Shown here in pieces: positions 17,401 through 64,000 of a stretch of 64,000 bases of DNA. The notes under the pieces are model-generated. The model was not told the DNA's origin. It ran no database searches and worked only from the letters and a program-made list of their open reading frames with translations. Positions within the stretch are counted from its first letter, which is position 1. The number at the start of each line of letters is the position of its first letter. Made by a program: the position numbers and the translations under genes. This DNA comes from Nautilus pompilius (taxonomy: Eukaryota; Mollusca; Cephalopoda; Nautilida; Nautilidae): assembly GCA_018389105.1 (NCBI GenBank), contig JACATO010000052.1, positions 1,426,001-1,490,000 on the forward strand, read 5' to 3'.

Positions 17401-19020
17401 GCACTTTACATTCTTCTCTCCCATGAATGCATCTGTACCCTTAATTTTGGTAACAGACAGCGGGTAAAACCTGAACAGAAGAACAGGCTTTGATAGCCAC
17501 GTCGAGATTAACTCTCGCTGGCAGATAAGAGGAGAAAAGGGTCGGGGGAGCGAGAGGAGAAATTCTGTAATACGAGATCTTCGGAATAACCAGCAGCAGC
17601 AGCAGCAGCCGCCAAGTTACTTCGACAGCGACGATCAGACAGCGTCAGGGGTTTTTTCCCCTACTGTTACTGCATGGAATCAATTAGGGGGGAAGGAAAA
17701 AATATATATATATATTCTCTGTGTATCAATGCAAATCTTAAATATGGGACTACTACGTCTAACAAATATTCCGCGTGATTCCCTAACGTGCAGCAGCAGC
17801 AGCAGCGGCACCACGTTCTTCCGAATCTATAATCATCAGATGGAAAGAAAGAAACCTGGAGAACGTTCCTTGTTATTGACAACCAAATTTACTTTTGCCT
17901 CCAGCTAGAATATTGGAGATGAGCGGCGTGCTAACGCATCGTTATTGGTTGCTATAAAACCTGACCGAACGAACTCATAATCAGATGCAAGTTCCGACTT
18001 GGATACAGAGAGCAGAATCTATTAACATGGTGCGTGCGGAGCCAGAGATAATTGGCTATTCTATACAGGGGGGGGGGAGACGTATTCCGCCATTGAAATT
18101 TTATCTGTTTCAGAACATACACACAGATCAGATGCGATTCTCCACTGGTTGTTATGGCGATATTCTTTAACAAAGATTGTTGTGCTACATACACGTAAAG
18201 GTGGGGGGGGGGAGATGTAAAGCCACTGTACAAACATCACTAGTTTCATGCTGACAAAAGGTGCCATTTGCATTATTAGATCACTTGTTTATTAATTTGT
18301 TGTTGTTGTTGTTTAACTAAGCACTATAAAAACAAAATAAAAAGGTGTCCCCACTGGTTACGTTGAGGAGGAGAATGGATTTCTGCAAGTCTGGGATATT
18401 ATTGTGAAGTTGAACGAAAAATTTAGAAGGGGGGGGATCGGCCGCAGTATTAATAGATAAGCGTTCAGCCTGGACCTGCTTCTTTTTTCCTTTCTTTTCC
18501 ACCCTCCCCCCCCAACATTTTAACCATCTCACGTATTGGTAAGATGAGCTTCAAATATACCGTGTGAACCAAATATGGAAAGCGTCCTTCATGCAAACTT
18601 GCAGCTTGTTTATGCTGGAATTAGAGAGAGAAGAGAGAGTAGGGGCCCCCCCCTCTCTCTCTCTCTCTCCCTTCCGCGGAATCGAACAGGCACCGACCCA
18701 AAATTAGAAACGGCACGAACAGAGGGACGAGAAAAAAAAAATCCGCGCTCCAGATGAGGGAAGAATATCAACCACCACCACCACCACCATATCTTCCCTC
18801 CCTGACAGACAGAAGAGACGAGGAGGAGGAGGGCGCCTTCGCTAATCAATCTGCGGCCCAGAACGCCATCGAGCTGCGCGTGCAGGGACCACTCGCCTTC
18901 GGATCCTGGCTGGCCTGGCTGGCTGGCTGGCTCGGCTCGGCTCGCTCGCCGGCCTGCCTGCCTGCCAGCCGTGAAAAGAATTCTGAATGCAACCTTCGCC
19001 TGACACGAGAGAGAGAGAGA

Positions 19021-19053
19021 GAGGGGGGGGGGGAGGCGGGGGAGGGGGGGGGG
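19021..19053 (+). repeat. Poly-G cluster, potential G-quadruplex
   Basis: Four or more separate G runs of five to eleven bases occur within about 33 bp of the plus strand, separated by A or AGGC. This meets the usual G-quadruplex pattern. A second, weaker G-rich tract follows at about 20,105-20,125. Both sit in the CpG block next to candidate first exons. Confidence 0.7.
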
Positions 19054-19203
19054 AGAGACGCCGCCGCCGCCGTCCGTCCGTCCGTCTTCCCCAAGTCGGG
19101 TTCCACCTCAAATCCCTCTGTCGGGATGGGAAGATCGCCCGGCGGGCGGGCGGGCTGAAATGGAAGGAGGAAAAAACAAGCGTACGAGTATACGAAGCCT
19201 TAC

Positions 19204-19375
19204 CTCGAATCACGTTTTATAAAACCCTTTTTTTTTACAAAAAAAATCCCTGTCGCTTCCACCGAACTGAAAATTCCCGATCGATTTCAACTGGAGCTCG
19301 CTGGGTCACACAACGCCATCTGTGTTTACGCTGTTAACTTTGAACGCATCGGGCGGAATGCTGTCGGCTCGGCTA
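19204..19375 (-). other. Candidate non-coding first exon of a minus-strand gene
   Basis: On the minus strand the segment ends at 19,204 with a strong donor (CGAG|GTAAGG). It contains a YY1-like word, ACAGATGGCGTTG (19,311-19,323), of the kind found at many TATA-less animal transcription starts. An ATG inside it gives only about 10 codons, so it would be 5' UTR. The upstream edge is a guess. A second, alternative minus-strand donor with perfect consensus (CCGCAG|GTGAGT) lies at 19,947. Together these suggest alternative first exons reading leftward. No transcript evidence is available here. Confidence 0.35.
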
Positions 19376-19796
19376 TTGTGAATATTCCTCCGCCGCGAGT
19401 TTAAAAAAAAAAAAAAAAAATTTTTTTTTCATAATAAAAATTAAACGAGAAAAAAATAAAACGATAAAATAAAACTAAACATATTTATATATGTGTGCAT
19501 TGGTAATTTCCCGGCTGATATTTGCTGAGCAGCGAGTTTTGCCCGTTCTCGTTTTCTTCTTCTCCTTCCTCCTCCGTCTACGACTGAGGTCACTAGGCCA
19601 AGGGACATAAATCGTAATATTAAGACGATAAAAAAAAACAAAAAAAAAAAAATTTTACTGTACAGGAAACTTCTTACTTGAAGGGTTAATAATCGGACAG
19701 TTTTAAATACCAAGTGAAATTAGGTGGAGATGAAGGAAATAAACTGGAAACTGCAGCCTCGGCGAGCGTCTGGCGACCAGCAAATAACTGCCGTGT

Positions 19797-19876
19797 TGTT
19801 ATTATTATTATTATTATCATTGTTGTTATTGTTATCATTATTACTATTTGTTGTTGTTGTTATTATTATTATTATT
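19797..19876. repeat. TTA/TTG trinucleotide repeat
   Basis: About 80 bp of imperfect TTA, TTG and TCA triplets on the plus strand. The Leu- or Asn-rich frames over it are artefacts of the repeat. Confidence 0.9.
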
Positions 19877-20418
19877 AGTTGGAAGGGAGAAAAGAGAAGA
19901 AACGTTCTTCCATCGTGTTGTTTACTGGACTGTGTCGTCAACTCACCTGCGGGGGTTTTCCGACACTGCGAGCTCGAGTAAACAACCGTATTTATTGTTT
20001 TATTTAAAAAAAAACAAAAAACAACAACAACAAACAACAAAAAACTGAATATTTTGTTTGTTTGTTTTTAGCATGGAACTCGTCGTCCGCCGAGAGCTGA
20101 ACGAGGGGGGGGAGGGGGGAAGAGGAGGAGGAGAGGGAGAAGCTACCTCGGCCAGCTGCAGGTGCTATGTCCGCTCGTCCCGGCCGGGGTGAGGACGAAA
20201 TTAACCGGCTGTCTTTGTCTCCGTCGTCGCCATTTATCGTTAACCTATTCGTGAAAAGCTTTTATTTTACCTTTCTATTGTTATTAACCCGCACCTACCA
20301 AAGAGAAGAGAAGTCGGCAACCGGCGGGTTGTGTTTGTTTGTCTGTTTTTCGGACTCAGCTGCAAAAGTTTTACACGGTAAAAAGAAGACAAAAACATGA
20401 AAGATGTTAGTATACATA

Positions 20419-20436
20419 TGTGTGTGTGTGTGTGTG
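20419..20436. repeat. (TG)n microsatellite
   Basis: Pure TG dinucleotide run within the CpG block. Confidence 0.95.
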
Positions 20437-22586
20437 AGGGTGAGGGTGTGTACAAAGAACCAGCAGAGGTTGAGTAGCTTCCATAACTAAGGCAGAGTCC
20501 GTCATTTTGTTCCATTGTCTTACGAGGAGGCGAGTTTACCTTGATAGGAATGGCGCGTGTCAGACGAAGGAGCAGGAGCAGGTGAGAAATCGTCTTGTTG
20601 AGAGGGAGGAAGGGAAAACCCGCCGGAGGTTGTTCGAGATGGTGGGAAGATACAGTGGTTCCAAGAGCGCTGGTGTGGCGGACTGGAATACGACGCTATG
20701 CCGCTTCATTGAGTGAGTGAGCACTGCTGCACACCTCGTACATTATACAGGTGCGCGATAACAGTAAAAAATCTCCACCTTTATCTCGTAGGCGCCCATT
20801 TGTGTTTCTGCTGCTGGTTCTCTCTCTCTCTCTCTGTGTGTGTAGCATCCATGTTTGACTGGTTTAAATTTTGAGAAAACGTATGACGGACTCATCAAAG
20901 ATGGTTAATCATCATCAAAAGACCGTTGCTGCTGCTGTTGTTCGTATCGAGGGCATCATAAATAGCGGGGAATCTCGGAATGTCGACAACAATAGTTACA
21001 TCTGTCGTCGGGCATTTAGGTTTTAATCGGAAATTCGAGAAATCTTATCGCGTATTTAAATATCAGTGCCTCTCCGCCCACTCAGGTAAGGGCAGGTGTG
21101 CTCAGGTAGAGACAGGCGGGGTAGAATTACGAGTTTATACAGATTAGAAACGTTCTTCCTCTCCATCTACTGCGAATAAATGAAAACTGTGAAAATCCGG
21201 CTTAAATTCGGCAACGCCCGCTGACCCCCCCCCACCTCTCCAACCGGATGAAGGATCTCTCTGACAACTACAACCAATTGATCACCGACAGGAAATGTTT
21301 CATTTACCATTTATAAATCAAATCGAACAACTTATTATTACCGGAGCGGCCAGCCACCTCGAAAGATTCTGCTTATTAAAACTGGTTCACGATTCCCTTC
21401 GGACAAGCGTTGTTGTTGTTGCTCTCTCTCATTCTTTACTCTCGCCGAGACTTCTCCCCTTTCTGTGTCAGTCGACTTCGTGGAACCGTTAAGTAAACAA
21501 ACTGTTTGTTCATGTACATATATCCTGCGCCATTCTCGTGAGCCACAACAGATAATTATATTATATAAAAATACTTTGCATGCCAATTTCTTTTCTTTTT
21601 TTTTTTAAAATTTTTTTTTGTGCTCAGCAAAAGAGATTAGATAGAATTGGTTCGACAGGAGTCTTGACTCGGGCGAGAATAACCCGTGCGTGGAAGGAAG
21701 GAAAGACAAGAGCACCAGCAACTCTAACACACCTGGAACGTGAAGAGAGATGACTGACAGGGCTAGAATGGATTCCGTTAACTGTTCCACCGGGCGGAAC
21801 CCGGCTATCAGCAAAAGAACACAAAGCTTCTAAAAGGTTTTCTTAGTAGATTCGTCATCATCATCATCATCATCGCTGAAACCAAATCACGAAATATCTT
21901 TTAATCGAAGAACTTCTAGAAGTGGCCAGTCTTTTTTTTTTTTCTTTCCGCGAAGTCACGTGGGAATATCCTTCTTCCTCTCTCCCCATCGACCGATATT
22001 AAAATAGATGGGACCACCCGCCATAGCCCCCTCCCCTAGAACTGAAATGCATAGTTATTACACATTTCAGATTTATCTCGTTGCAGCTAACACAATGAGA
22101 ACGAAGCGATATCGATTATTAGGCTTTAATATTACGAGTAAACGCAGTAAAGTCTGCGAGTGTGAGAGCAGCCCTTTAAAACATATATACCTGTTACAGC
22201 GACAGTAATACCTAACTAAACGTCCAGATTACTTGTAAATGAACACCCGAAGCATATGACGTCGTGTATAATTCACCTGTACGGGTAATTATGAATCAGT
22301 GATGCTAGACAGCAACCACCCCACCGGTATCCTCTTTTAAGAATACACTTAAAATTATTTTTCAGAGTTTACAGGTTGTTTGTTATGTAATTCGATCAAT
22401 GTCGCTAAAAAAATCAGTTCAACTCTTTTTTTTTTTGCTATAAATTCCGGAATGCAGATTCCTTCAAGTGGCAGGAGTTTGCCTAAGTTTGAAAACTTTG
22501 GTGCTGTTCACGCCACAGTTGTTGGGCTGCTCAAGTCAGCAATCAAGAGAAATTCGGTCTTTCGACTCTTCGGAAAACGTATGTGC

Positions 22587-22611
22587 GACGTCACAGTTGT
22601 GCAAGATGGCG
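22587..22611 (+). promoter_or_regulatory. CRE-like half-site next to a YY1-like site
   Basis: GACGTCA (22,587-22,593) is followed 8 bp later by CAAGATGGCG (22,602-22,611). The second word is close to the YY1/initiator motif CAAGATGGCGGC found at the start of many animal transcripts in this orientation. The ATG inside it opens only a short frame. I read this as a possible rightward transcription start within the CpG block. This is inference from motif and context. Confidence 0.4.
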
Positions 22612-22989
22612 TCTTGTAGCACGAGATGGCAGTTTCTTTTTATTTTAACCTCCGATTTACATAAGTAATTTTTTTTCCAATTAATAATAATAATAAGACA
22701 ATACTCTAGTATATTATTTAGAGCCCCCACGCTTCTGTTAAAGTTTATATGCAACATGGAAGGAGAAACATCAAAACACCGTCTGTTGAGTATAGCCAGG
22801 TGCATGGTGGGAGGTAATAGCATGTTGATCTGAGCTGCTGAGTACAGCCGAGAGCGAGGACCAACAGGAGCTGTGATGATGGTGATGATGATGATGATGA
22901 TGAAGAAAAAAACAAACAAATCGAGAAATACCCCAGAAACACACGTAGAAAATTTACCGGAGAGAAAACGGATAATAAAAATATATTTT

Positions 22990-23168
22990 GGGGCAGAAAC
23001 AAATTATGTATGAGAGATCTCCGACTCCCGGCGGGTGGTGTAGTACACGGCAGTTCCGCTCCCCGTCGGCGACTCAAACGTCTACTGTTTTCCAAACGCG
23101 GTGGCTTTAATGGCAAATATATATATATACTATCTTTGAGTCAGCGTATCGATCATCTCAAGAGCCAG
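22990..23168 (+). other. Candidate first exon of a plus-strand gene
   Basis: This CpG-rich segment ends at 23,168 in a good donor (GAGCCAG|GTAGGTGAAC). Other plus-strand donors of good quality lie at 21,085 (CACTCAG|GTAAGG), 25,206 (CGTACAG|GTATTG), 27,045 (CCCAG|GTACGT) and 32,990 (GCAGCAG|GTACAC). The block could therefore supply several alternative 5' exons to the plus-strand unit whose coding exons I place at 35-42 kb. No in-frame start links any of them to those exons, so the 5' end is unresolved. Confidence 0.3.
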
Positions 23169-23409
23169 GTAGGTGAACGCTTCTCACAACCTGCGTTCTT
23201 GTGTAGACCGTGTGATGGCTTCCTGCCTGCTTATTATACCAAATCTGCATTAAGATGAAGCGCAGCTAATTCCACTCTCCCAACCCTACCCGTTGAGGTC
23301 TATTTGGATCTTTCGTGGATCGATGGAAGAAACTGCCTCCCTCACTACACGCCGGATTACATCCGAGCTCTCGTTTTACTGAAGTTAGCGCTTTTGTCTG
23401 GTACAGGTA

Positions 23410-23421
23410 CGCGCATGCGCA
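23410..23421. promoter_or_regulatory. NRF1-like site
   Basis: CGCGCATGCGCA matches the palindromic NRF1 consensus (YGCGCAYGCGCR). It lies in CpG-rich DNA about 240 bp downstream of the 23,168 donor and directly after a CAG|GTAC word. NRF1 sites are typical of CpG-island promoters in animals. Occupancy here is inferred. Confidence 0.5.
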
Positions 23422-24727
23422 CGCGACGGTGATTGCCTGGTATTACAATTATACTAAGGAAGTACCATAAAACAAGAAGAATATCTGCTCGATTTAGAAG
23501 GGTACAAATTATAACGGTTACAGAATTTTTTTTTTTATGCTTTGTTTTGGAAAATCCCGCTTAAACGAAATATTGGCGGAAAGCTACCCTATTTTCATGG
23601 TTACCATGACAGTGTCACGTGAAAAATAATTACCTGTTAACATATGGGCTTGCTGGCCCATACATCAGACTGACGTGAAAGTCCCCTGCGAACTGTTTTG
23701 ATTTACAGGGCTTTGACAAATTACCAGCCTCTTTTCCATGCACAAATAAATCCATGTTTTGTGGCCTAAGGGTCACTAGCTAGTAACTCCTACAGAGAGG
23801 AGGACAGAGTGCGAAAGAGGTCAACCGACAAAGGTCATCCATTCCTCCCTTTGTGATTACGCAGGTCCGGATACAGCACGGCTGGCAAAATTATATTTAT
23901 ATAAAACTCGCTAAATTATTATTATTAAAACGATATAAACTTTATTATTCATTAGTAAAATGTAAAAAAAAAAAAATAGAGAGAGAGAATTAAAAAAAAA
24001 AAATGATTGTGTTCATTCAAACGAAGACGTTTTAAAAAAAATTACAATTTACTGCGGAACTGCTTTAATATATCGGATGATGAATCAGTTAAAGATGCTC
24101 GATTAAGTAAATATTAATACATAAAATAATCATTTACTAATCGGTAATATAAATTATGTATATTTCAAAAACAGTAAGACCTAACCCTTTTTCATTCATT
24201 GAACATAATGATATGGAGCAGTACTGCTTACTACGAATTTTCCATTTGTTTTAATTGTTTTAAAAGAGGTGGAAATTTTTTAAAGAAAAAAAGGTTAATT
24301 TTTTTTTTTTTTTTTTTTTTACATACATACGATGATATTTAGATCTCTGTCGTAACAATTCGATCATTCTCGCAAAAAGGAGTTTCTCCGGGGCTCGCGT
24401 GTCCGTGGCCGGCCGAGGTTACGCAGTCTCATTTTCAGAGAATGTATGATGCCGATAGCTCGCGGCAGCTAAGAGGGCGGGTCGGGTGCATCAGGTAGTT
24501 GCTCCTCTTTTTGGAGAGGAAGGCGCGCAGCTAAAGCACATCGGCACCCTCCCTCGCACTATCAGCACGCGCAGAAGGGGGCTGTTACTTGCCGAATTCG
24601 CCATGATCATCCCATCAGTCCCTTTCGGTATTTTGCAGCATCAACACCCACTGTGATGCTGCACTGCATAAACTTGATTGTACTGGACGAACTGCTTAAC
24701 GACGGCCATAGCAACCGACGGGAATAA

Positions 24728-25138
24728 AGACGACTGAACGTTCGTGAATCGGTTGATGACGATACTTTCAGCCCGTGTGTTTATAATCAGCTGTCAAACA
24801 CGAGGAATTTAGACAGTTTCTTTAAGGGAGCAAAGCAGACCTGGAATTTCATTGATGGACGGCAGAATTCCGCCGGTTACATGTCCGGAATACAGCCATC
24901 TTTCTTCTCCCTGGTGAAGAGATTCTCCACCATGTTCACCGGAACCTATTGGAAGATGGACCGAAACGCCATGTAGTTACTTTCTGGCAAACCGGATCCG
25001 GACATGAACCTCCGCTGGACATCTGCAACGTGGGAGCATCTTGATAAACAATTAAGGGGTCAGGTGACCAACTTCACAGCAACAACCGGGGGAATGTCTG
25101 GAAACGTTGCGGAAAATCCTGGCCTAGGTCACCACTGA
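24728..25138 (+). pseudogene. 137-codon frame with one internal TAG, unknown
   Basis: One plus-strand frame runs 82 codons, meets a TAG at 24,974-24,976, then runs another 53 codons to a TGA, all in the same frame. It includes the peptides FFKGAKQTWNFIDGRQ, FSLVKRFSTMFTGTYW and, after the TAG, WEHLDKQLRGQVTNF, which have ordinary amino-acid composition. There is no start codon near the beginning. It lies in balanced-GC sequence that ends at a good donor (25,206). It could be a decayed exon, a transposon remnant, or chance openness in GC-balanced DNA. I recognise no family. Confidence 0.2.
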
Positions 25139-25219
25139 TGATCTGACACATTTCCACATCCAGATGACTACAAATTCCACTGGATGTGAGAGATGCCCGT
25201 ACAGGTATTGTAATTAGAA

Positions 25220-25253
25220 GTGTGTGTGTGTGTGTGTTGTGTGGGTGTGTGTG
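25220..25253. repeat. (TG)n microsatellite
   Basis: TG-rich tandem run immediately downstream of the CAG|GTATTG donor at 25,206. Confidence 0.95.
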
Positions 25254-26287
25254 AAGCCCGTGCCAGCCAAATTATTACGGCAAGGATCTGTTGTGTACGC
25301 ATTTTAAAAAGAGGAGAGAGGGAAAAAAAAAGACAGAGAAAACTGAAATTTAAAAAAAAAAAAAAAAAATTCGTTCCAAAAATAAGAAGAATCGGAGGAC
25401 CAGAAAGGAGATAATCCGGCCGTAGCTTTCACCGAGACGAGATCTGAACCTATAACGAACGTTACATTTAAATTCCAAATCCACGTAAAAACACTGAAAA
25501 TAAACTGAAAGTAATCTTTCCTATTGTTGCAGCACTTGAAGTCATTAAAAAAAAATGGAAAGGGGGGGGGGCAATTAGAGTTTGTCAAGAGCAACAATAA
25601 CACTAAATTAATTAATTAATTAAATTGGCATGACGTGTTGTTCTAAGCATTAATTGTGGTGCGCCCTAAAAGATGATTGCTGTCAAAGTCTCTAAAAGAT
25701 CGATAGCATCCCCAAAGTGTAAACAAACCACATACGTGTAGCCAGTTTTGTTTTTCCCATCATCGAACTAGTAGCCAAAGGGAGATAAATATGATTAATT
25801 CCGGTTTCATTCTTAACTAAAAAATCAATACAAAACTATTTTTTGTGAATCGGCGCGGGTAGGGACCATATAAATCAAACTATTTCTAAATCTGTGTTAA
25901 TATTCCATGCACAGTAAATGAACAAAATCCAGCTGATCTGAGGAGGTCTGACAATAAAATAAGTTACGAGTTTTTATAAAACTATTTCCAGAGATGATGT
26001 TCTAGAGAAAACTTTAATAATCTGTGTGGGCCCCATTATTATTATTATTATTATTATTATTAGTTAAATTAACTGCCATCGACTGATCCTTATAGAATTC
26101 TGAATAATAAATTCTCCTTGGGATCAGTGGAAAGCCAGGGTGGGAAGAGGCGTCTCTCACCGCTGTCGAATGAATTCCTCCTACCTCTTTGTGTTAGTTT
26201 TGCACCGAAACTGGGCACACAGTTCGATAGTTCCATACGTGCGTATTTATCGTTTTCACTGTCGTTTCCTATTTAAAAAAAAAAAAA

Positions 26288-26307
26288 ATATATATATATA
26301 TATATAT
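26288..26307. repeat. (TA)n microsatellite
   Basis: AT dinucleotide run after a poly-A tract. Confidence 0.95.
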
Positions 26308-26605
26308 TGTCTCCCGCCCGACCTCTCTGCTACCATAACTTCCCTTGAGCGTCCTCTTAGAACGTCAAGACCAACGCTGTTCTTACAGTACTGGAGAGTG
26401 CTAAGAGAGAGGAGGACAGAACGATACACGTCACCAGTTAACCAGATCACATCTGTTATACGGAACCTGATTTTAGCCCTGGGCACGGGGTCTGATGTAA
26501 AACATGAAACAATCTTTCCGAAGGTATCACAAACAAACGAGAAGATCGTTTTATTATGAAATTGCGATATTTAAAAATGTTTTCCGCGCCCCAGATTACT
26601 TTAAT

Positions 26606-26903
26606 ATCTCTCTCTCTCTCTTTCTCTCCATCTCTCTCTCTATCTCTCTCTGCTGATGACATCTCACTCTCTCTACTGATGTCATCTCTCTCTCTACTGA
26701 CGTCATCTCTCTCTCTATTGATGTCATCTCTCTCTCTACTGATGTCATCTCTCTCTCTACTGACGTCATCTCTCTCTCTATTGATGTCATCTCTCTCTCT
26801 ACTGACGTCATATCTCTCTCTATTGATGTCATCTCTCTCTCTCTCTCTACTGACGTCATCTCTCTCTCTCTACTGACGTCATCTCTCTCTCTCTCGCTCT
26901 CCT
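26606..26903. repeat. CRE minisatellite array 1 (21-bp unit)
   Basis: Tandem array of CT-rich units of the form TCTCTCTCTACTGACGTCA. Five units carry the exact CRE palindrome TGACGTCA (26,698; 26,761; 26,803; 26,851; 26,874). Five carry TGATGTCA (26,678; 26,719; 26,740; 26,782; 26,824), the variant expected from deamination of the central CpG. From 26,678 to 26,824 the octamers recur every 20-21 bp, close to two helical turns. Overlapping open frames of about 106 codons on both strands (Ser/Leu-rich, Glu/Arg-rich) are artefacts of the repeat. Confidence 0.95.
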
Positions 26904-27780
26904 GTAATTCGATAAACAAATAACGAGATGTGGAGAAATAAGAGGATTTTCCAGTATCCGCCTGTTTATGTAAGTTTCCAGGAGCAAACCAGATCTCGAA
27001 TGTTCTAAAAACTGTAGACGTGACTAGGATGTGATGTTTACCCAGGTACGTCCGTGAGGCTTCATTAATGAGCAGGTTAACGATTTTTTTCTTTTAACAG
27101 CTGGAGACTGGTTTTCTTTTAATCACGCACACACAGGAATTCCATCTAAATTCAGAACAGACGACTGGTACAAGACACAGACCCAGCAGGGGCCGAGAAT
27201 AACTACTTATATCTAAATGGAGAGTGTGAAAGCCCTTAAAAGCATTCCCTCTGTCGAAATAGGGTTTATTTTCGGATAATTTCTTATTTTAAAAAAAGTG
27301 CCAAATTGCATGATTAATGTTTACTGAAATTGTCCTTAATAGGAGCAAATGTAGCAGATCTGGACTCCGGCTGGGACTCGCAGATTCTTACAAGAATCCG
27401 TACTCCACCCGAATTTTACACTTTCGTTTGCAATTGTTTCTGTTGTAGATATTTCAGGTACGAAATTATGTAATTACAGTATGACGCCTGTAAACGTGTG
27501 TTTGTGTACATTATTTTAATATTGTAATCCAAAACCAACAACAAACCGTTCATTAGCAAAAATTCAGGGTGTAGCTAATGGAAAACAGTAGTGAAAACTG
27601 GGTTATGAAATGAAAATAACACGTGATGTAATCGTATCTCATGGGTAAAAACGATATGGTTCATAGTACGGTTATATGCGGATATACCACACTGTGAATG
27701 GATGTCATGCAAGCAATGGGACAGTGTGTCACTGACACCCGCAGCATGGGCAATGCTATTATTCTAGTGTGGTGAATACT

Positions 27781-28700
27781 ATGGCTCCTGGGAAGGAAAT
27801 ATCACTCGACAACTGTATAGAAATCAAAATGTCAGCTAGCGAAGGCTACTCTGTGGTATATTGCAGCCCGACTACATGTTTCAGAAGGAGCAGTATGCAA
27901 GACTCTGAGGAGGATACGGAAAACGGGTACCCTTGAATATAGGCGCGGTCGAGGAAAGAAGGTTTAAATCCTCCAAAAGTGATGGTAAGTACCACAGGGT
28001 TCTAGAAATACGTGACAGAGGACGAGCCAGTAGAGATCTTGTACTGAAGATATGGGTGTTATCGAGTCTTCGAGATCAGTAATATACGCATTAGTGCGAA
28101 GTGGCTTCAATAGATGTGGAAGCTTCCGGGAAAATCTATGCTGAGAATAGGAACCGAACAACGAGGCTGAAAGGGGCAACAAAACTGAAACAATGGGATG
28201 TAAGATGGCCAACCTGGAAGAAGGTGCTCTTTACAGATGAATCCATATTTGGGCTGTTTGTCAATAATCAGTGGAGGCGGATCACGGAACGTTATAATAG
28301 TTAGCCTACAGCAATGACAGTGAAGCATATGGGGAAATCAATACAAGTGAGGGGCTGCATATCATGCGAGACTGTCAGGGATTTTTATAAAATTGAAAGT
28401 ATACTGACTGCCGGCACTCCCTCAGGAAGACATTTTATAGAGCGGTTTAATTCTCCAACACGACGACGGCCGTTGTGGTTGAGCAGTCTCTAGAACGCGA
28501 GGGACCACTCAGAGAGATGCCTTGTTTTCAAAGCGTCCTGATGTGAACACCACTGAGACTACATAGGGTCATCTGGCTGCTGAGAAGCTCAAACGGCGAC
28601 CAGACACCTTGGATGGATTATAGAAAGTGTTGGGTGACGTTTGGAACATTCAGTCAGAATGTATGGAAGCACGAAATCGACGTCAACTCTATATGAAGCA
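27781..28700 (+). pseudogene. Decayed Tc1/mariner transposase
   Basis: A fragmented Tc1-family transposase on the plus strand. The start (27,781) reads MAPGKEISLDNCIEI. It is followed in another frame by a helix-turn-helix and GRPR-like segment (RLHVSEGAVCKTLRRIRKT, then EYRRGRGKK). The second-domain signature WKKVLFTDESIFGLF, which holds the first catalytic Asp, lies around 28,219-28,263. Next comes a degenerate TVKHMGKSIQVRGCIS block near 28,319. The middle of the DDE domain and the C-terminus are broken by stops and frameshifts. No clear terminal inverted repeats were found, so the boundaries are those of recognisable coding remnants. It is inactive and lies between CRE arrays 1 and 2. Confidence 0.85.
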
Positions 28701-29393
28701 GAGGGGCTCACATACCAAATACTAACGCACTGTACAACGTATTACTTTTGTTTCTGTATATTTTCTGTAATTATGTATTATTATATAGTGTTTCAGTTGC
28801 AATTACTCATCATTTGTGCATATTCTGTGCTTTTATAATTATTGTATATACATTAAAGAATTAGCTAATAGCCATTAAATACAGATCTTGATGTACTTAG
28901 TTGTTTAAAACGTTCGATATATATTTTAAAAAATTTATTAAAGAAATCTGTTGCTGTAAAATAATTTGCATGTTTCTTTATGATAATCAAAGCTACAGTT
29001 TTGTTGCGGTGCTCACGGAAATCATCAGTTTTTAAAAAGTCCATGAAATCTTGCAAAAGGCCTTAAAATCGCTGGATAAGAAAATTCCTTCATTTTCTTT
29101 TTTTAAAAAAATTCCGCATGTCATGAGTTGAAATACAAATATGTGAAATTTGTCTGGTTGCGTGTGCAGCCCTGTAGGTCGGTCAGCCGATAAGCGAAAG
29201 AGATGGGAGTGAAAAAATGACGACAGCAAGAGGTCCGTCCATCAGCGAGCAGGGCGGAAGATATCCAGAGGAAACATTTCTCGAAAGCAGACGATATTCA
29301 CGTAGACTACAAGCGAAATTTGGTTCCGACTTAAAAGATCGCTCTCCCGTAATCGCTTTGAGGAGTCTATCGGCCTGCGAGAAGAATCAACGA

Positions 29394-29401
29394 TGACGTC
29401 A
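29394..29401. promoter_or_regulatory. Isolated perfect CRE palindrome
   Basis: A single TGACGTCA followed by TCTCG lies about 110 bp before array 2 in non-repetitive CpG-rich DNA. It shares the TGACGTCATCTC context of arrays 1 and 3. It could be a genuine CREB/ATF promoter site, the sequence from which the arrays expanded, or a leftover unit. Confidence 0.5.
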
Positions 29402-29492
29402 TCTCGATCGCGAAGTACAACGCGCTGCTGCTTCACAATCGTGGAAAAAAGATTTTTTTGAGGCGGAGTTTACTGCTATGTACTCTGTTATA

Positions 29493-30015
29493 TGAGAGAG
29501 AGGTGGCGTCAGTATAGAGGGAAAGAGAGATATGACATCAGTACAGAGGGAGGGAGAGAGATATGACGTCAGTACAGAGGGAGAGAGAGAAATGACATCA
29601 GTACAGAGGTGGGGAGAGATGGCGTCAGTACACAGAAAGATTACGTCAGTAAGAGGGAGAGAGATATGACGTCAGTACAGAGGGAGAGAGAGAAATGACA
29701 TCAGTACAGAGGGGGGAGAGAGAGATGGCGTCAGTACACAGAAAGATGACGTCAGTACAGAGGGAAAAGAGAGATATGACGTCAGTACAGAGGGAGGGAG
29801 AAATGACGTCAGTAAGAGGGAGAGAGATATGACGTCAGTACAGGGAGAAATGACGTCAGTACACAGAAAGACGACATCAGTACAGAGGGAGAGAGAAATG
29901 ACGTCAGTACAGAGGGAGAGATGACGTCAGTGCAGAGGGAGAGAGAGATATGACGTCAGTACACAGAGATTACGTCAGTACAGAGGGAAAAGAGAGATAT
30001 GAAATCAGTACAGAG
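29493..30015. repeat. CRE minisatellite array 2 (inverted orientation)
   Basis: About 20 units of the form GAGAGATATGACGTCAGTACAG, separated by GA-rich spacers. The unit is in reverse-complement orientation relative to arrays 1 and 3. Ten exact TGACGTCA palindromes start at 29,564; 29,668; 29,748; 29,778; 29,804; 29,830; 29,851; 29,899; 29,922 and 29,951. Variants are TGACATCA, TGGCGTCA and TTACGTCA. Spacing is mostly 19-31 bp. Blocks such as the one ending TGGCGTCAGTACACAGAAAGAT recur, suggesting a higher-order unit. There is no coding potential. Confidence 0.95.
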
Positions 30016-30229
30016 TCGGGGAGGAGAGAGACTAGAATTTCAAAATTACAGGCGGTAATATCATCAAAACGAATAGGTGCAAATAGATCAATGATAATTT
30101 TTTTTTAAAAGGCTGAGTTGCAACTAAATGAAAACGAACAAAATACAACTGTCGTTAGTTCTCCAAAAATGTCAGTTTATTTATGGTTTCTTTCTTAAAG
30201 TCTCTCGGCCGCGAAGCGAGAGTTCAGAA

Positions 30230-30760
30230 AAGACGATAATCTTCCACACCCATTAAGTGCCCCGGTCTTAAAAGCGGGATTACCGCAGATTCCGCTCGCG
30301 CCGCCATCATCCCTTTAAGAGCCCCGGTGTCGCCACTCCCACCACTCTGGAAGTCCGCGAATTAATCTTCTTTCACCGTGTCTCGAGTATCACGAACCCT
30401 ACATCCATGACCACTTTGCGAGCGCCGTCTGGTGGTCGGTCTCTACTTAACATCTGGTGGGATTTTGTTTGTTTCTTTCTTTCTCTTTGCAAACACAGCA
30501 ACGTAATTATAACAATTACGGAGCAGTTCTCGATCGTGGACTTGGAAATCTTTCACATCCAGGTTTTAAAAACACGAACAAGTATTTATATATATTTATT
30601 TAATCCTACGCGGTGCCACACCTGCCTAGCGCGCGAGGTCAGCAAGTGCGTGTGGTTCGCTCCCCTCGCATTACAACCTACAGGCGCCCTCCTCCCCAAC
30701 TTCCTTTTCCATCACATCGCCGCCATCCAACTGAGGAATGACCCAAATTGTGTCCTTTCT
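30230..30760. promoter_or_regulatory. CpG-rich segment with YY1-like and CTCF-like words
   Basis: Unique GC-rich DNA between arrays 2 and 3. On the minus strand it has GGATGATGGCGGCGCG (30,300-30,315), which contains the YY1 core ATGGCGGC. On the minus strand CCACCAGACGGCGCTC (about 30,419-30,434) matches the CTCF core CCASYAGRKGGC with one mismatch. An open frame of 121 codons at 30,407-30,772 has no recognisable domain and is probably chance. Regulatory roles are inferred from motif resemblance only. Confidence 0.3.
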
Positions 30761-31577
30761 TTCAAAGGATGAAAACTTGAGTGGTTATGACCCCTTTACC
30801 TAAAGGCAGTGAGGTTAAACTGCGCCCTGGTGATCTCCCCCCACCATCTCTCTCTCCTCAAAATAAATCCCAGACTTTGCTGTCTTCTAGAAAGAAAACT
30901 AAGATGAAAGAAAGAAGCGGATTGAATGCCATCGTTGATACAGGGAAGAGCCGACCAACACAGAATAATAACAAATAAACTTCCGGTGGTAGACAGACAC
31001 TCGCAATTAATTTTCTTTTTTGGGGAGGATTTAAAGTAAAAAATAAGATAAATTCTGGAGCCCAGTCGTCACATACATATTTATAATACATCTATTACTT
31101 GTAGTTTCAAATCTCAGTCACGAAATTAAAATTGAAATTTTATATAAATGAATATACATTTATTAAAACCTTGGTTTTAATTATTTATAACATCGCTGAT
31201 TAAAGTTTGTGATCATTAATAATGCTTGATGTTTTTCCTAAGTATATAAAACTGACAATCAAAAAAACCCCCCTTATTTAGCTTCTGTTGTTGTTTGTTT
31301 TTTTTTCCTTTCTTTTCTCAAATCTAAAAATATTTACATTACAATTGATTTTAAAATTTCACGAGATAGGTGGAGAACTAGGGAACTCAGAGTGGATTCT
31401 TGGAGCAGAGCTGTGCAGGGAGAATTCGAAGTGACGGCTAATACAGGAAAACACGTGACTATGCAGCGAGGGTTTTTTATAACAGCGAAAAATCTGAGAG
31501 GTAAATTATCCAGCGGGTTAGGGTTTGAACACTTAGTGACTGTGTCCAACACACACACACAGAGACGCAGAACGCGA

Positions 31578-31617
31578 ACACGTGTTCTCTCTCTCTCTGT
31601 CTCTACACTGACGACAT

Positions 31618-31659
<42 letters not shown>

Positions 31660-32270
31660 CTGACGTCATCTCTCTCCTATATTATAACTGACGTCATCTC
31701 TCTCTCTATATATATACTGACGTCATCTCTCCCCCTTACCCCCCCTACCCCCTCTATATCTCTATGCTGACCTCATCTCTGTACTGATGCCCTGTTTCTC
31801 TCTCTTTACTGATGTCATCTCTCTCTCTATATATATATATATATCTGACGTCATCTTTCCCTCTATATCTCTATGCTGACGTCATCCCCCTCTCTATATC
31901 TATATACTGACGTCATCTATCCCTTCTATATGTCTATGCTGACGTCATCTCCCTCTATATATATATGTCTATGCTGACGTCATCTCCCTCTCTCTATATA
32001 TATCTCTATGCTGACGTCATCTCTCTCTATATATATATGCTGACGTCATCTCCCTCTCTCTCTCTCTATATATATATTTCTATGCTGACGTCATCTCTCT
32101 ATATATATATATGCTGACGTCATCTCCCTCTCTCTATATATATCTCTCTATGCTGACGTCATCTCTCTATATATATATATGCTGACGTCATCTCCCTCTA
32201 TATATATATCTCTATGCTGACGTCATCTCTCTATATATATATGCTGACGTCATCCCCTCTCTCTACGGTT
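31578..32270. repeat. CRE minisatellite array 3 (about 30-bp unit)
   Basis: Tandem units of the form TATGCTGACGTCATCTCTC separated by (TA)n and CT-rich spacers. Sixteen exact TGACGTCA palindromes start at 31,661; 31,689; 31,718; 31,846; 31,877; 31,908; 31,940; 31,975; 32,012; 32,041; 32,086; 32,115; 32,154; 32,183; 32,218 and 32,245. Most spacings are 27-39 bp, clustering near 29-31 bp, about three helical turns. One unit has TGATGTCA (31,810) and one TGACCTCA. Orientation matches array 1 and is opposite to array 2. The Ser/Thr-rich frames over its left edge are artefacts. Confidence 0.95.
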
Positions 32271-32449
32271 CCATCGCATGAAATCGACGTGCACACGTGG
32301 TCTACGTTTTTAATCGATTTGAATATAATCGAACATTCGATATTTTTACACTTTCTAAAAGAAATATTTTAAAATATACTTAATATTTTGAAATTCTAGA
32401 TGTGTGATATTTCTGACTAATATCTATATCATCACTTAAAAGGGATGTT

Positions 32450-32990
32450 TGCCCGGATCCCCCCCCCCCTTGTTATTGTTATCTCCTGACCAGGGAGGGA
32501 GGGACACGAAGGTTCTCTCTCTCACTTCTCCTATTATCGCCCCTGACGTTCGTTCCCAAAGCGATATCTGGTGGGTTGCTGCTGCTGTTCCCTCCCTGTT
32601 ATCTCTGTATATGTATATTTTGAAGTAAGTGGGGATGATGGTGACTATAACAGGTGAGCGTGTGCCCCAGCCCATGTAGACCTACCGGCGGCTCCCCCCC
32701 CCTCGGGTCCCGCCATGCTGCCCGGGCCGCTGTGGCTAAATAACGAAGCTGCTGTAGATGTGTTCACCGACACAGGCGCCTCCTCCTCCTCCTCCTCCGA
32801 TCGATCTCCCAGCGATTGCGATCTAGTGGTCGAACGTGAAACACGGAACAGTTGGAGACCGGGTCGCGATGAGATCTGTAATCCGCGGGAAACTTAAAAC
32901 TCCTCACTGGCTCCCTCCCACAGATAGGCGCCCCCCACTCTTCACCTGTACGCCACTGGATACCTGGCTGTCTCCGGATAGCGGCAGCAG
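32450..32990 (+). promoter_or_regulatory. CpG-rich segment with possible first exon
   Basis: GC-rich unique DNA immediately downstream of array 3. A frame starting at 32,715 (GCCATGC context) encodes 60 residues, MLPGPLWLNNEAAVDVFTDT and onward with a (TCC)n-encoded Ser run, then stops at 32,897. A good donor, GCAGCAG|GTACAC, follows at 32,990. A second frame (32,836) crosses that donor in phase 2, which does not fit the phase-0 exon at 35,374. The segment may therefore be a leader exon, but coding status is doubtful. Confidence 0.3.
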
Positions 32991-33767: not shown

Positions 33768-34925
33768 GCCTCTTTCCATCTCTCTCTCTCTTTCCATCTC
33801 TCTCTCTCTCTCTCCTCTCCTCTCCTCTCTCTCTCTCTCTCTCTTCATCTCTCTCTCTCTCTTTCCATCTCTCTTCCATCTCTCTCCTCTCGCTCTCTCT
33901 CTCTCTCCATCTCTCTCTTCCATATCTCTCTCTTTCCATCTCTCTCTTTCCCTCCCTCTCTCTTTCCATATCTCTCTCTTTCCTCTCTCTCTCCATCTCT
34001 CTCTTTCCATCTCTCTCTTTCCATCTCTCTCTTTCCATCTCTCTCGCTCTCCATCTCTCTTTCCATCTCTCTCTCCCCATCTCTCTTTCATCATCTCTCT
34101 CTCTCCCCATCTCTCTTTCCATCTCTCTCTCTCTCAATCTCTCTTTCCATCTCTCTCTCCCCAACTCTCTTTCCATCTCTCTCTTCTCCCCATCTCTCTT
34201 TCCATCTCTCTCTCTCCCCATCTCTCTTTCCATCTCTCTCTCTCTCCATCTCTCTTTCCATCTCTATCTCCCCATTCTCTTTCCATCTCTCTCTCTTTCC
34301 ATCTCTCTCTCTCCATCTCTTTCCATATCTATCTCTTTCCATCTCTCTCTCCATCTCTCTCTTTCCATCTCTTTCCATCTCTCTCTCTCCATCTCTTTCC
34401 ATATCTATCTCTTTCCATCTCTCTCTCCATCTCCATCCTTTCCATATCTATCTCTTTCCATCTCTCTCATCCTCTCTCTCCATCTCTTTCCATATCTATC
34501 TCTTTTCATCTCTCTCTCCATCTATCTCTCTCTTTCCATCTCTTTCCATCTCTCTCTCTCTTTCCATCTCTCTCTCTTTCCATCTCTTTCCATATCTCTC
34601 TCTCTCCCTCTCTCTCTCTCTCCATCTCTCTCTTTCCATCTCTCTCTCCATCTCTCTCTCTCTCTTTCCATCTCTCTCCATCTCTCTTTCCATCTCTTTT
34701 CCATCTCTTTCCATCTCTCTCTCTCTTTCCATCTCTCTCTCCATCTCTCTTTCCATCCTCTTTCCATCTCTCTCTCTCTCTCCATCTCTCTCTCCATCTC
34801 TCTTTCCATCTCTTTCCATCTCTCTCTCTCTCTCTCATCCTCTCTCCATCCTTCCATCTCTCTCTCCATCTCTCTCTCTCTTTCCATCTCTCTCTCTCTC
34901 TTTCCATCTCCTCTCTCTCTCTCTG
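33768..34925. repeat. 1.15-kb polypyrimidine satellite
   Basis: The plus strand is almost wholly C and T with periodic A, built from variants of TCTCTCTTTCCATCTCTC. Two plus-strand frames stay open for about 400 codons and several minus-strand frames for over 100 codons, because the repeat contains no stop words. Their Ser/Leu/Ile/His-Phe or Glu/Arg/Met/Lys products are meaningless. Long homopurine-homopyrimidine tracts with mirror symmetry can adopt triplex (H-DNA) structure. Confidence 0.97.
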
Positions 34926-57563: not shown

Positions 57564-58812
57564 TCATGATACCTGGATGATTTCTAAGCTTCCGTGTAAT
57601 GAACTGTGGCTGCCACTTGATGATATGCTACTGCTTGACTGATAGGTGTCTGATGACCCTCGCATTCGACAGGACAAATTATCAAAGATTCCCGATGAAT
57701 AAATATCAGCGGCTGCTCCACATCGCTGTGGCAGTTTACCTAATGGCGAGCAAGCACAATCTAAATCTGATGGTTCTTCTTCACCCGAGGTCAAAATGTC
57801 ATCTAAACTGCGAGATTTGCGAGAATTTTCAAATACACGCGTCCTTAACATGGCATTCTCCATGGCTGCAGCAATTTGTTTGTATACATGTCTTTCAGAA
57901 TAACGACCATAGTGCCATCGTCCAGTTTCTGAATGTTTAGATTTTTTGCCATTATTCAACAAGTAAGCCTCTGATGTATCATCCTGAGAAGTGCTACTGC
58001 TGGATCCTGGCGACTCCTGGCAGTCTGAACCCAAATCGAATGTTGGGTAGGTCGAAAATGCAATACTGTTTGGTCGTACCATGGGTCGTTTTACGCGATT
58101 TTCCCTAGAGCGCATGGTAACCTGAGTGTTTCCAGTTGGTGATGTTACAACAGAACTTGAAGTGCTGCTGCCGCCGCTTGTTGATCCAGGTGAAAGAGGT
58201 TCAGCCTCATCGGAAGATTTTGGTCGTTTAACGGCTGTGGTCCGAGGCCTTGCAGGGCTGCCGCTCTCATCCTTTGCAAAACATGGAGTGAAGCTCAATT
58301 TGTCCAGTGAGGTAGTGGGAAACTTGTGAAGCTGCAGCTCCTTCTCTACAGTAACTGTCTCTGTAAATTCCATACTTTCAACTATGGACTGGTTGAAATT
58401 GAGTCTGGCTAGTGCTGTTGTGGGAGACTGCACAGTGTGGGCTGGTGTTGAACTTACAAAAGACGAGCTCAAAAAATTGAATGGCTGCACTGGTGTTGAC
58501 ATCAACTGTAATGAAGTGGTAATGGACTTGTCTGAAAGGTCACTAACCGTTTGCTTGTGAATTGCATGCAATTGAGGTGAAATAGTTGTTGGGCTAGAAG
58601 AGCTAGTCCGTAGTAACTTTGTTTTTGGTGACACGGTGTTGCTACAGAGATCCATAGCAATAGATCCTTTGCTTTCCTCTGCACTCCTCCCCAAGGCTTC
58701 CAGCTGGCGTTTTGCTGATTCTGATTCTGCTTTTAATTGTTTTTCATAATCTAATAACTGCCCCAAAAAATTGAAATTTGGAGATATTGTTGGACGTTTA
58801 TCTTTCACATAC
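57564..58812 (-). CDS. DUSP8/16: Last exon of a DUSP8/DUSP16-type MAPK phosphatase
   Basis: The acceptor TTTGTATCATTGCAG is followed by G|TAT. The exon starts in phase 2 and runs 415 codons to TGA. The first 26 residues, YVKDKRPTISPNFNFLGQLL plus DYEKQL, are the last helix of the dual-specificity phosphatase domain and match DUSP8/DUSP16 (MKP-7 group) closely. The rest is the long Ser/Thr/Pro-rich tail of that group. It includes RPNSIAFSTYPTFDLGS (about residue 246), a basic helix-like KQIAAAMENAMLRTRVFENS (about 311), a SRKSRSLDDIL motif, and a C-terminus GSLEIIQVS that resembles the vertebrate DUSP8/16 ends. Family members dephosphorylate Thr and Tyr of JNK/p38 kinases. The rhodanese-like domain and the catalytic Cys exon are not in the window. 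At least 5 kb of intron lies upstream, holding the nested transposons. An apparent upstream ATG at 58,826 is intronic. Confidence 0.93.
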
Positions 58813-60420
58813 CTGCAATGATACAAACAGTATTATCAGAATAAAAATTTAAAACTGTTCTATAATTAACCTTCTTTTTTTAAATACAGTTTTTATATAA
58901 ATAGTATAATATTTCTGTTTAAAAACAGACATTTTCTAACAGATATAAACAAACTGCTGAAGTGTTTTCTTGGTGGTGGTGGGGGGGGGGCCCAAGAACT
59001 GGTGTACATGTGAAAATTGTATTAATGAGAACAACAACCATCAATGTGCGATAAGCAGGACAGGGTTGCACATTAGAGGTATGGATTAAATAATACATTT
59101 AATTTTTCCTTTTATTTAATAAAAAAAATGAACCGCTAATTTCACAACTTATTATATGCTGTTTTTGATGTAGAAAGTAACAATCCATCATTAATCTTAT
59201 TTGGCAGTGCGTCTCTGACCAGCAAATCATTTTTTGGAAAGATGTAGTCTTGAAAAAATAAAGAAGAAAAAGTTCTCCTGTCAACCATGCCAATCTGTTA
59301 AAGAAATAAACAATTTAGCTTAATAACTAAGATCATTTTTTTTTTTTTTAAAAAAAAGTTATATTTATATTTTGGTCTGGCAAGAGAGTAATTCCGTTCT
59401 AGGGTGGTCACAGCATAAAACCAATGAGAGAGAGAGAGAGAGAGAGAGAGATAGATATATTCCTGGAAACGTGCATGGTTTAATGAACCATGGAACCAGA
59501 TTACCATTGTGAACAGATGCTCTGAAACAGCTCAAATACAGGAAATGCATTATAAGTACTCAGCTCATTGATGTGAATAATCAATTTGCTATTAAACCAC
59601 ACCATTTAAATCTCACCAAAAACAATTTTATTTATTCATAGCAAATTTATTGTACTTGTGGAATTTTTTATGCAGACATGGCTATGATTATAAGAACACA
59701 TAATGGATGTAAGTCATTAAAATTATGTTAGTTTTTTCTTAACTTTGCTATGAACTACGTGTACAAAAACCACAGCTAGGATAAGTAATTCTGCAATTGT
59801 GAAATATGAAATCTTTGCTTTGTTTTCTAGTTACAAGTATTTTAGATACTGAAAAATACTACATATTAACCTTTATCAAACATTTTACCATTTGTTAGGT
59901 GACAAAAATTAAAACCAAGAATAAAAAGTCTATCAATTTCTCAAATTTAACAAAGAGATGAGAATACCAAATTTGAATGGGATAAAATCTAGAAATGCCC
60001 AAAGATAATTTGGGGGTAAAGTGTATACCAAATATTATTTGTCCAACTCCAGATAAAACACAACAACATATGCTTGATTGTGTGTGTTTGGGAACTTAAC
60101 AACAATACACAAAAAAAAGAAAAATTAGTCAGTTAGATAAAACTGAAAAGCTTTACACTGATACAAATACCAAGATGGTAGATGAAAAATTAAGAGATAT
60201 TAGGACACTTTAAACTAACTTTTCTAAGGAATGAAAATGTGAATAAGAATTTGAAATACAGCAAAATGATTAGTAGTAAATATCTTGCGTGCATTTACTT
60301 TTCTTACATTAAAATAGATTTCATGATAACAAAAATTTTAGAATGAATCAAGCAGTCTCAAAATTTTGTCACCAAAAATAATTTCTAGAGATTACATAAG
60401 ATAAATAGATCAAGGGAGTA
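58813..60420 (-). other. Intron of the DUSP8/16 gene (3' part)
   Basis: AT-rich DNA with a poly-G tract (58,980-58,990) and (AG)n at 59,425-59,450. No catalytic-domain exon is visible on the minus strand, so the intron continues rightward through the transposon nest to beyond the window. Confidence 0.7.
59425..59450. repeat. (AG)n microsatellite
   Basis: Uninterrupted AG run. Confidence 0.95.
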
Positions 60421-63768: not shown

Positions 63769-64000
63769 TATGGTGATCCACAAGATAAATACACTGGTCT
63801 GTGTAAATATTTGCCCAAGTTGACAAAATAATTTGGAATAAGTGATCTGAATTTCTAGGTTTTTTCATCTTAATATCATTCCATAGATTCTCTATTGGAT
63901 TCAAATCAAGGCTTTGAAGTGGCAACTTTAGAACAGGAGTTTAATGATTGTTGAGATACTGTTTGATTATGGTGGCCAAATGTTTTGGATCATTATGCTA
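63769..64000 (-). pseudogene. Tc1 transposase, central part, runs off the window
   Basis: On the minus strand from the right edge: a degraded NDPKHLATIIKQYL (usual QQDNDPKHT), then LPLQSLDLNPIENLWNDIKM, then ILSTWANIYTDQCIYLVDHH, at which point the pogo-like insertion interrupts the gene. A stop lies between NDPKH and LPLQSL. The N-terminal domain and the outer terminal repeat lie beyond 64,000. Apparent residues after LVDHH (KVPCIIHSIF) are encoded by the inserted element's terminal repeat, not by Tc1. Confidence 0.9.

What the first reader, a model, noticed from the sequence alone, without database searches (positions are those of the whole stretch)
26606..32270. Three arrays carrying 31 perfect CREB/ATF palindromes around a CpG promoter block
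Exact TGACGTCA occurs 5, 10 and 16 times in arrays 1, 2 and 3. By chance about one copy would be expected per 65 kb. The octamer is the one feature conserved between arrays whose spacers differ (CT-rich; GA-rich with GTACAG; TA-rich). This suggests either expansion of a CRE-bearing promoter fragment or selection on the palindrome. Arrays this dense next to candidate promoters could act as a CREB/ATF sink or a cAMP/stress-responsive super-cluster. That role is inference; neutral satellite expansion is the default alternative.
Basis: partly seen in the sequence, partly recalled or inferred. Interest (0 to 1): 0.85.

Follow-up and report, generated by a model that had tools for sequence, protein, structure and literature searches.

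The report
Genome-wide minisatellite carrying CREB/ATF sites
Three short repeat arrays full of perfect CREB/ATF-type sites are real, but they are ordinary copies of a repeat family scattered through this animal's genome, so they are most likely neutral repeats rather than a special control switch for a nearby gene.

Summary
The counts are right: TGACGTCA occurs 5, 10 and 16 times in three arrays, plus one solo copy; shuffles give 0.33 per window. Array 2 is the same repeat on the opposite strand; the shared core is CTGACGTCAT in CT-rich spacers. The window's own genome (727.6 Mb; size fits Nautilus pompilius, an inference) holds 93,914 TGACGTCA, 12-fold over composition, and 14,833 copies of one 18-base unit, reversed control 0. 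The three arrays resemble each other no more than they resemble 17 arrays elsewhere. Octamer constraint is unproven: its CpG varies most; its other bases vary as much as the adjacent bases by one test, slightly less by another, borderline. CpG survival follows the surroundings: 169 of 210 units in CpG-rich flanks, 13 of 56 in CpG-poor. The "CpG promoter block" is part of a 15.4-kb CpG-undepleted domain without a recognised coding domain. Best reading: a dispersed, mainly neutral minisatellite whose core is a CRE, kept intact where DNA is presumably germline-unmethylated. A genome-wide CREB/ATF sink is untested, not excluded.

The parts
26643..26892 (+). Array 1: 11 units, mostly 21 bp, core CTGAYGTCAT; 5 perfect TGACGTCA and 5 exact TGATGTCA
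29494..30015 (-). Array 2: 20 units of 19-31 bp, same unit in inverted orientation (read on the minus strand: mostly CTGTA-CTGACGTCAT-[ACT]TCTC); 10 perfect TGACGTCA
   Evidence: BLAST match to array 3 on the opposite strand
31608..32265 (+). Array 3: 20 units of 17-52 bp with (TA)n and (CT)n spacers, partly a 68-bp two-unit repeat; 16 perfect TGACGTCA
29394..29401 (.). Solo TGACGTCA outside the arrays; membership of the family uncertain
   Evidence: read
17461..32886 (.). Domain of undepleted CpG (o/e 0.96) between CpG-depleted DNA (0.23 and 0.32); holds all three arrays; no Pfam family over its cut-off found in the parts scanned

Best explanation
The arrays are three ordinary members of a dispersed minisatellite family with very many copies in this genome. 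The unit here is 17-52 bp: the core CTGACGTCAT (elsewhere often TCTGTA-CTGACGTCAT-[A/C]TCTCTC) set in CT- or TA-type microsatellite spacers. Shown: genome-wide spread on both strands, locus-specific spacers, core divergence and its dependence on CpG surroundings. Inferred: short seeds of the core are copied between CT-rich tracts (by an unknown route; no shared flanking element was found), then each array grows and is homogenised locally by slippage or unequal exchange. The core looks conserved mainly because it is the only complex sequence in the unit while the spacers slip. The CRE stays perfect in much of this window because the arrays sit in a CpG-undepleted, presumably germline-unmethylated domain; in CpG-poor DNA the same core decays, often to TGACATCA or TGATGTCA. 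Any CREB/ATF binding would be a by-product unless shown otherwise.
For: Own genome: 14,833 exact CTGACGTCATCTCTCTCT, reversed control 0; 93,914 TGACGTCA, 12 times the composition expectation and 28 times with a CpG factor, while the reversed control octamer is 2.6 times; 91 of the first 100 listed sites, all on contig C1, have another within 100 bp. 17 fetched array loci (two, 15) show the same core with different spacers. With the flanks fixed and the core free (TCTGTA-N10-MTCTCTCTC) there are 15,502 matches, reversed control 273, and 5,409 with the exact ten-base core: about 35%. Within 20 arrays (349 units, picked by the core) mean deviation from the array's own consensus is 7.2% at non-CpG octamer sites, 11.7% at its CpG and 6.8% at the two adjacent bases. 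CpG retention in the core follows flank CpG o/e: Spearman 0.64 over 28 of 29 loci (one with fewer than 2 units dropped) and 0.68 over 25 of 28 loci picked without requiring a CpG (three with fewer than 3 units left out); units with CG are 169 of 210 in CpG-rich and 13 of 56 in CpG-poor flanks. Window arrays differ from each other (0.24, 0.28, 0.30) about as much as the mean pair among 20 arrays (0.26). Tandem CTGACGTCAT arrays also occur in 4 bacterial contigs (read), in organisms without CREB (recalled), so such arrays can arise without it.
Against: When units are picked by their flanks and the core is left free, the non-CpG octamer bases deviate from the family core less than the two adjacent bases: 4.6 vs 8.1% in 37 arrays, 4.7 vs 8.2% in 36, 5.3 vs 10.6% in 29; bootstrap intervals of the difference 0.000 to 0.075, -0.003 to 0.080, 0.001 to 0.111. 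The gap comes from the C before the octamer (13-16%); the T after it is kept about as well as the octamer (2-6%). Positions further out (-3 to -1, 10 to 13) deviate by 22 and 19%, which selection on the core would also give, though indels of microsatellite inflate it. The CA variant of the 18-mer is only 1,546 against 14,833 intact, so most copies of that form keep the CpG. Array loci are enriched in CpG-rich DNA (22 of 28 vs 20 of 70 background bins), which could mean function or chromatin preference rather than passive survival. Exceptions to the CpG rule: L049 (flank o/e 0.86, 3 of 17 units with CG), L037 (1.04, 6 of 13) and array 1 of the window (0.90, 5 of 10). No mechanism of dispersal was found.
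Confidence: 0.74

Rival explanations
1. Genome-wide CREB/ATF reservoir: unmethylated arrays bind bZIP factors and titrate them, buffering cAMP or stress responses, as alpha-satellite is reported to do for C/EBP-alpha.
For: 93,914 perfect CREs, mostly in arrays where looked at (91 of the first 100); arrays lie mostly in CpG-rich domains where the site would be unmethylated; borderline lower variation of non-CpG octamer bases in flank-picked units; a pKID (CREB activation domain) match exists in the genome (35.6 bits, positions 5-24 of 41, one stop in the frame as read); the precedent is described in passages of PMC12085094 and PMC9993476; the CpG is reported critical for strong CREB binding and TGATGTCA a functional weaker site (PMC1796609 abstract).
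Against: No binding, expression or chromatin data; about 65% of flank-anchored units lack the exact ten-base core, and 43 of the 95 family-like ones listed lack the exact octamer; the CpG is the worst-kept part of the octamer.
Confidence: 0.12
2. Local cAMP/stress-responsive super-cluster: this particular trio of arrays regulates a gene beside it.
For: Three arrays in under 6 kb inside a CpG-undepleted domain.
Against: The first 100 listed CREs, on the first 160 kb of contig C1, already form nine groups of two or more, one with at least 26, so a group of 16 is not special; Pfam scans of six frames of 16.0-26.0 and 26.9-33.75 kb found no family over its cut-off (one match below it); the nearest recognised gene piece, a DUSP8/16-like exon at 57,564-58,832 on the minus strand, is about 25 kb away and points its 3' end at the arrays.
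Confidence: 0.04
3. Expansion of a CRE-bearing promoter fragment: one local promoter piece was duplicated and inverted to give the three arrays.
For: All three carry the same core; one is inverted; a solo TGACGTCATCTC lies at 29,394.
Against: Array-to-array flank-profile distances inside the window are about the average of 20 arrays, and the nearest relative of each is on another contig; no cross-array match outside the repeats.
Confidence: 0.03
4. The arrays are internal or terminal parts of a transposable element (for example a fold-back element with tandem-repeat ends) that disperses them.
For: Array 2 is inverted relative to arrays 1 and 3, and an interspersed repeat at about 27,598-28,830, between arrays 1 and 2, recurs in three other fetched loci, one of them (L040) an array locus.
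Against: Masked flanks of 17 array loci do not match each other; the cross-matches are to that interspersed repeat and one 77-bp match of L005 to a background window.
Confidence: 0.07

Closest known systems
Dispersed minisatellite / euchromatic satellite families (for example TCAST1 of Tribolium; search listing and start of abstract only: PMC5844308, PMC4537270)
   Same: One tandem-repeat family spread as many short, locally homogenised arrays.
   Different: Unit built on CT/TA microsatellite spacers with a perfect CRE palindrome as core; no expression evidence here.
Satellite DNA acting as a transcription-factor decoy (C/EBP-alpha on alpha-satellite; passages of PMC12085094 and PMC9993476)
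   Same: Very many bZIP-type sites in tandem repeats, so a sink is conceivable.
   Different: Dispersed in short arrays rather than large satellite blocks; binding not shown.
Canonical mammalian CREs in CpG islands (PMC1796609, abstract and passages)
   Same: Same octamer; same dependence of the perfect CpG form on presumably unmethylated surroundings; same decay products TGATGTCA and TGACATCA.
   Different: Those were surveyed around transcription starts; these are tandem repeats with no promoter link seen here.

Membership tests
Dispersed minisatellite family | Head-to-tail units of about 10-60 bp | tested here: met
   51 units of 17-52 bp in three arrays; TRF
Dispersed minisatellite family | Same unit at many unrelated places on both strands | tested here: met
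   7,614 forward and 7,219 reverse exact 18-mers; 17 loci read
Dispersed minisatellite family | Local homogenisation (array-specific variants) | tested here: met
   Locus-specific spacers and core variants; flank profiles
Functional CREB/ATF element | Octamer better conserved than adjacent sequence | tested here: inconclusive
   Core-picked units: 7.2% (CpG 11.7%) vs 6.8% for adjacent bases. Flank-picked units: 4.6-5.3% (CpG 9.8-12.7%) vs 8.1-10.6%, bootstrap intervals touching zero
Functional CREB/ATF element | Occupancy by CREB/ATF and cAMP response | not testable with these tools
   No chromatin or expression data held
Functional CREB/ATF element | Near a transcription start | tested here: inconclusive
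   No coding domain over cut-off in the parts of the CpG-rich domain scanned; transcription starts not mapped
CpG-island promoter | Short CpG-rich segment standing out from its surroundings | tested here: not met
   30.2-30.9 kb is not distinct from the 15.4-kb domain around it
Transposon-borne repeat | Shared flanking element at independent copies | tested here: not met
   No flank shared between array loci (17 compared with each other and with the window), except the interspersed repeat common to L040 and the window

The most novel reading that the evidence does not exclude
A cephalopod-like genome has filled its unmethylated compartment with tens of thousands of perfect CREs in dispersed minisatellite arrays, and these act together as a genome-wide, methylation-gated CREB/ATF reservoir (and perhaps help keep their domains unmethylated through bZIP and GA-binding factors). 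Nothing measured here excludes this; the enrichment of arrays in CpG-rich domains and the slight excess conservation of the non-CpG octamer bases would be its footprint.
Probability: 0.1. Interest if true: 0.85.

Novelty: new member of a known kind. Interest (0 to 1): 0.42.

Why it matters
It turns a striking local cluster into a testable genome-level fact: one repeat family probably supplies most perfect CREs of a 728-Mb genome (an extrapolation from the sites looked at). That makes this species a natural test of whether repeats titrate a transcription factor, and a warning that motif counts in single CpG-rich windows mislead. It also shows a methylation-like footprint on one motif across arrays that share a core.

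Tried and rejected
Transposon-borne dispersal: masked flanks compared, nothing shared between array loci but one interspersed repeat. Terminal inverted repeats at the ends of the CpG-rich domain (a large mobile element): only short or CT-type matches, and no Pfam family over a cut-off in the parts scanned (one match of 14.3 bits against a cut-off of 28.1). Inverted repeats between arrays 1 and 2: only three weak pairs of 14-19 nt. Rfam and tRNA scans of the window: nothing. IMG/VR scan for tandem CTGACGTCAT: 0. GTDB scan: 4 bacterial contigs with unrelated tandem repeats, kept as a control. Literature: unit sequences in print, 0 papers; TGACGTCA with minisatellite and tandem repeat, 1 paper, on another subject; capped listings without a title about this family (20 of 430 listed; 12 of 115; 8 of 1,456). 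Not counted because the machine stayed busy: the TG-variant 18-mer, the CTGAAGTCAT form, the CTGGCGTCAT form and one free-core pattern.

A further test with flank-picked units does not bear that out cleanly, so the claim was weakened, the membership row set to inconclusive, and confidence moved from 0.78 to 0.74 (sink 0.10 to 0.12, promoter fragment 0.04 to 0.03, novel case 0.08 to 0.10).

Weak points: the array and background stretches come from 6 of 2,558 contigs (C1, C2, C5, C6, C7, C52); loci on one contig are not independent; the background windows were taken at fixed steps, not at random; arrays were chosen by a pattern that holds the perfect core; the species name is inferred from assembly size only; 'unmethylated' is inferred from CpG o/e, not measured; that most CREs lie in arrays rests on the first 100 listed sites, all on C1.
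Full report
What is there. Exact TGACGTCA occurs 32 times in the window, all within the reported interval: 5, 10 and 16 in three arrays and once alone at 29,394; dinucleotide shuffles give 0.33. Tandem Repeats Finder confirms the arrays. All 51 units share a core like CTGACGTCAT in CT-type (array 3: CT and TA) spacers, and 31 keep the perfect octamer. BLAST of the window against itself finds no cross-match between arrays outside the repeats, but does pair arrays 2 and 3 on opposite strands.

Where it is. The window lies at C52:1,426,001-1,490,000 of a 727,640,739-base assembly in 2,558 contigs. Its size is close to the 730.58 Mb (contig N50 1.1 Mb) reported for Nautilus pompilius (PMC8257504, passages seen); that name is an inference. 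The window contains the last coding exon of a DUSP8/16-like phosphatase at 57,564-58,832 on the minus strand (Pfam DSPc below its cut-off; best PDB matches DUSP16, E 4.8e-9, and DUSP8). A two-state segmentation puts all three arrays in one domain, 17,461-32,886, with CpG o/e 0.96 against 0.23 and 0.32 outside. The surroundings have the CpA/TpG excess expected of methylated DNA (1.27-1.28 vs 0.99). In 20 windows of 10 kb taken at fixed steps on five contigs, 4 have CpG o/e of 0.75 or more and 16 have 0.49 or less, so the genome looks like a CpG mosaic and the 'CpG promoter block' is only part of one CpG-undepleted domain. No Pfam family over its cut-off was found in six-frame scans of 16.0-26.0 and 26.9-33.75 kb (one match below cut-off).

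It is a genome-wide family. The 18-mer CTGACGTCATCTCTCTCT occurs 14,833 times, the same letters reversed 0 times. TGACGTCA occurs 93,914 times against 19,528 for the reversed octamer; from the composition of the 20 windows 7,650 are expected, or 3,366 with their CpG factor. Of the first 100 listed sites, 91 have another within 100 bp, and the largest groups hold 19 and at least 26, so 16 in array 3 is not exceptional. Seventeen loci read in detail have the same core, often TCTGTA-CTGACGTCAT-[A/C]TCTCTC, with locus-specific spacers. Their masked flanks do not match each other; L040 shares with the window an interspersed repeat (about 27,598-28,830) that also occurs in two background windows, and L005 has a 77-bp match to another background window. 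The three window arrays are no closer to each other (0.24, 0.28, 0.30) than the mean of all pairs among 20 arrays (0.26), and each has its nearest relative on another contig. That argues against expansion of a local promoter fragment.

Is the octamer selected? The evidence is mixed and does not show strong selection. In 20 arrays (349 units picked by the core) mean deviation from the array's consensus is 7.2% at the six non-CpG octamer positions, 11.7% at the CpG, and 6.8% at the two bases that flank the octamer inside the core. When units are picked by their flanks and compared with the family core, non-CpG octamer bases deviate by 4.6, 4.7 and 5.3% and the two adjacent bases by 8.1, 8.2 and 10.6% under three anchor rules (37, 36 and 29 arrays); bootstrap intervals for the difference are 0.000 to 0.075, -0.003 to 0.080 and 0.001 to 0.111. 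The excess lies in the C before the octamer; the T after it is kept about as well as the octamer. The listing, tallied, leans the same way (non-CpG octamer sites 0 to 11 changes of 95, adjacent bases 14 and 5). Bases further out deviate by about 20%, but they are microsatellite. Genome-wide, with flanks fixed and the ten core bases free there are 15,502 matches (reversed control 273), of which 5,409 have the exact core; of the 100 places listed, 95 have a family-like core and 52 of these the exact octamer.

Loss of the CpG follows the surroundings. At 28 loci found by the flank pattern, which does not require a CpG (two listed places that are not family members were left out), units keep CG in 169 of 210 cases where flanks are CpG-rich and 13 of 56 where they are CpG-poor; these sums and the Spearman coefficient of 0.68 use the 25 loci with at least three units. 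An overlapping set of 28 of 29 loci, partly chosen by the CpG form, gives 0.64. Clear exceptions are L049, L037 and array 1. This matches what was reported for human CREs, where perfect sites sit mostly in CpG islands and TGATGTCA mostly outside (PMC1796609, abstract and passages).

Results that go the other way. Array loci are enriched in CpG-rich DNA: 22 of 28 have flank o/e of 0.7 or more against 20 of 70 background bins of the same contigs (C6 apart, which has no background bin), Fisher p about 1e-5. The CA variant of the 18-mer is about ten times rarer than the intact form (1,546 vs 14,833). Both could reflect preference for, or a role in, open unmethylated chromatin, as well as faster loss in methylated DNA. 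The genome has a partial match to the CREB pKID domain, so a binding protein probably exists. A genome-wide sink is therefore possible and is the most novel reading, but nothing here shows binding.

A control from organisms without CREB (recalled): in the GTDB collection of 84,980 genomes, 4 contigs carry tandem CTGACGTCAT within short repeats of quite different spacers (read). Tandem CRE-like palindromes can thus arise without selection for CREB; the viral collection had none.

Conclusion. Dispersal, locus-specific spacers and CpG-context dependence are shown; copying between CT-rich tracts, slippage and germline hypomethylation are inferred; octamer selection is unresolved; CREB/ATF binding is untested. 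No report of this family was seen in the searches, which cover open-licence PubMed Central papers only and, except, show capped lists.

Noticed in passing
window 17461-32886: Sharply bounded 15.4-kb domain of undepleted CpG (o/e 0.96) in CpG-depleted DNA; 20 windows at fixed steps suggest the genome is a mosaic of such domains.
   Followed up: partly
window 33779-34924: A 1.1-kb array of TCTCTCTCTTTCCA-type units just outside the CpG-rich domain; shares CATCTCTCTC with the CRE units but has another core.
   Followed up: no
window 27598-28830: Interspersed repeat, Tc1/mariner-like by eye but without a Pfam match; recurs in L013, L030 and L040.
   Followed up: partly
window 57564-58832 (-): Last coding exon of a DUSP8/16-like MAP kinase phosphatase.
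   Followed up: partly
window about 63860-63985 (-): Weak DDE_3 (DDE superfamily endonuclease) fragment, 18.9 bits, below the cut-off of 28.6.
   Followed up: no
L053 and L022: Arrays in which most units carry CTGAAGTCAT-type cores (6 of 7 and 3 of 4), so the family has non-CRE core types that spread within arrays.
   Followed up: partly
L001-L004: Four bacterial contigs with short tandem repeats that contain CTGACGTCAT, with different spacers in each.
   Followed up: partly
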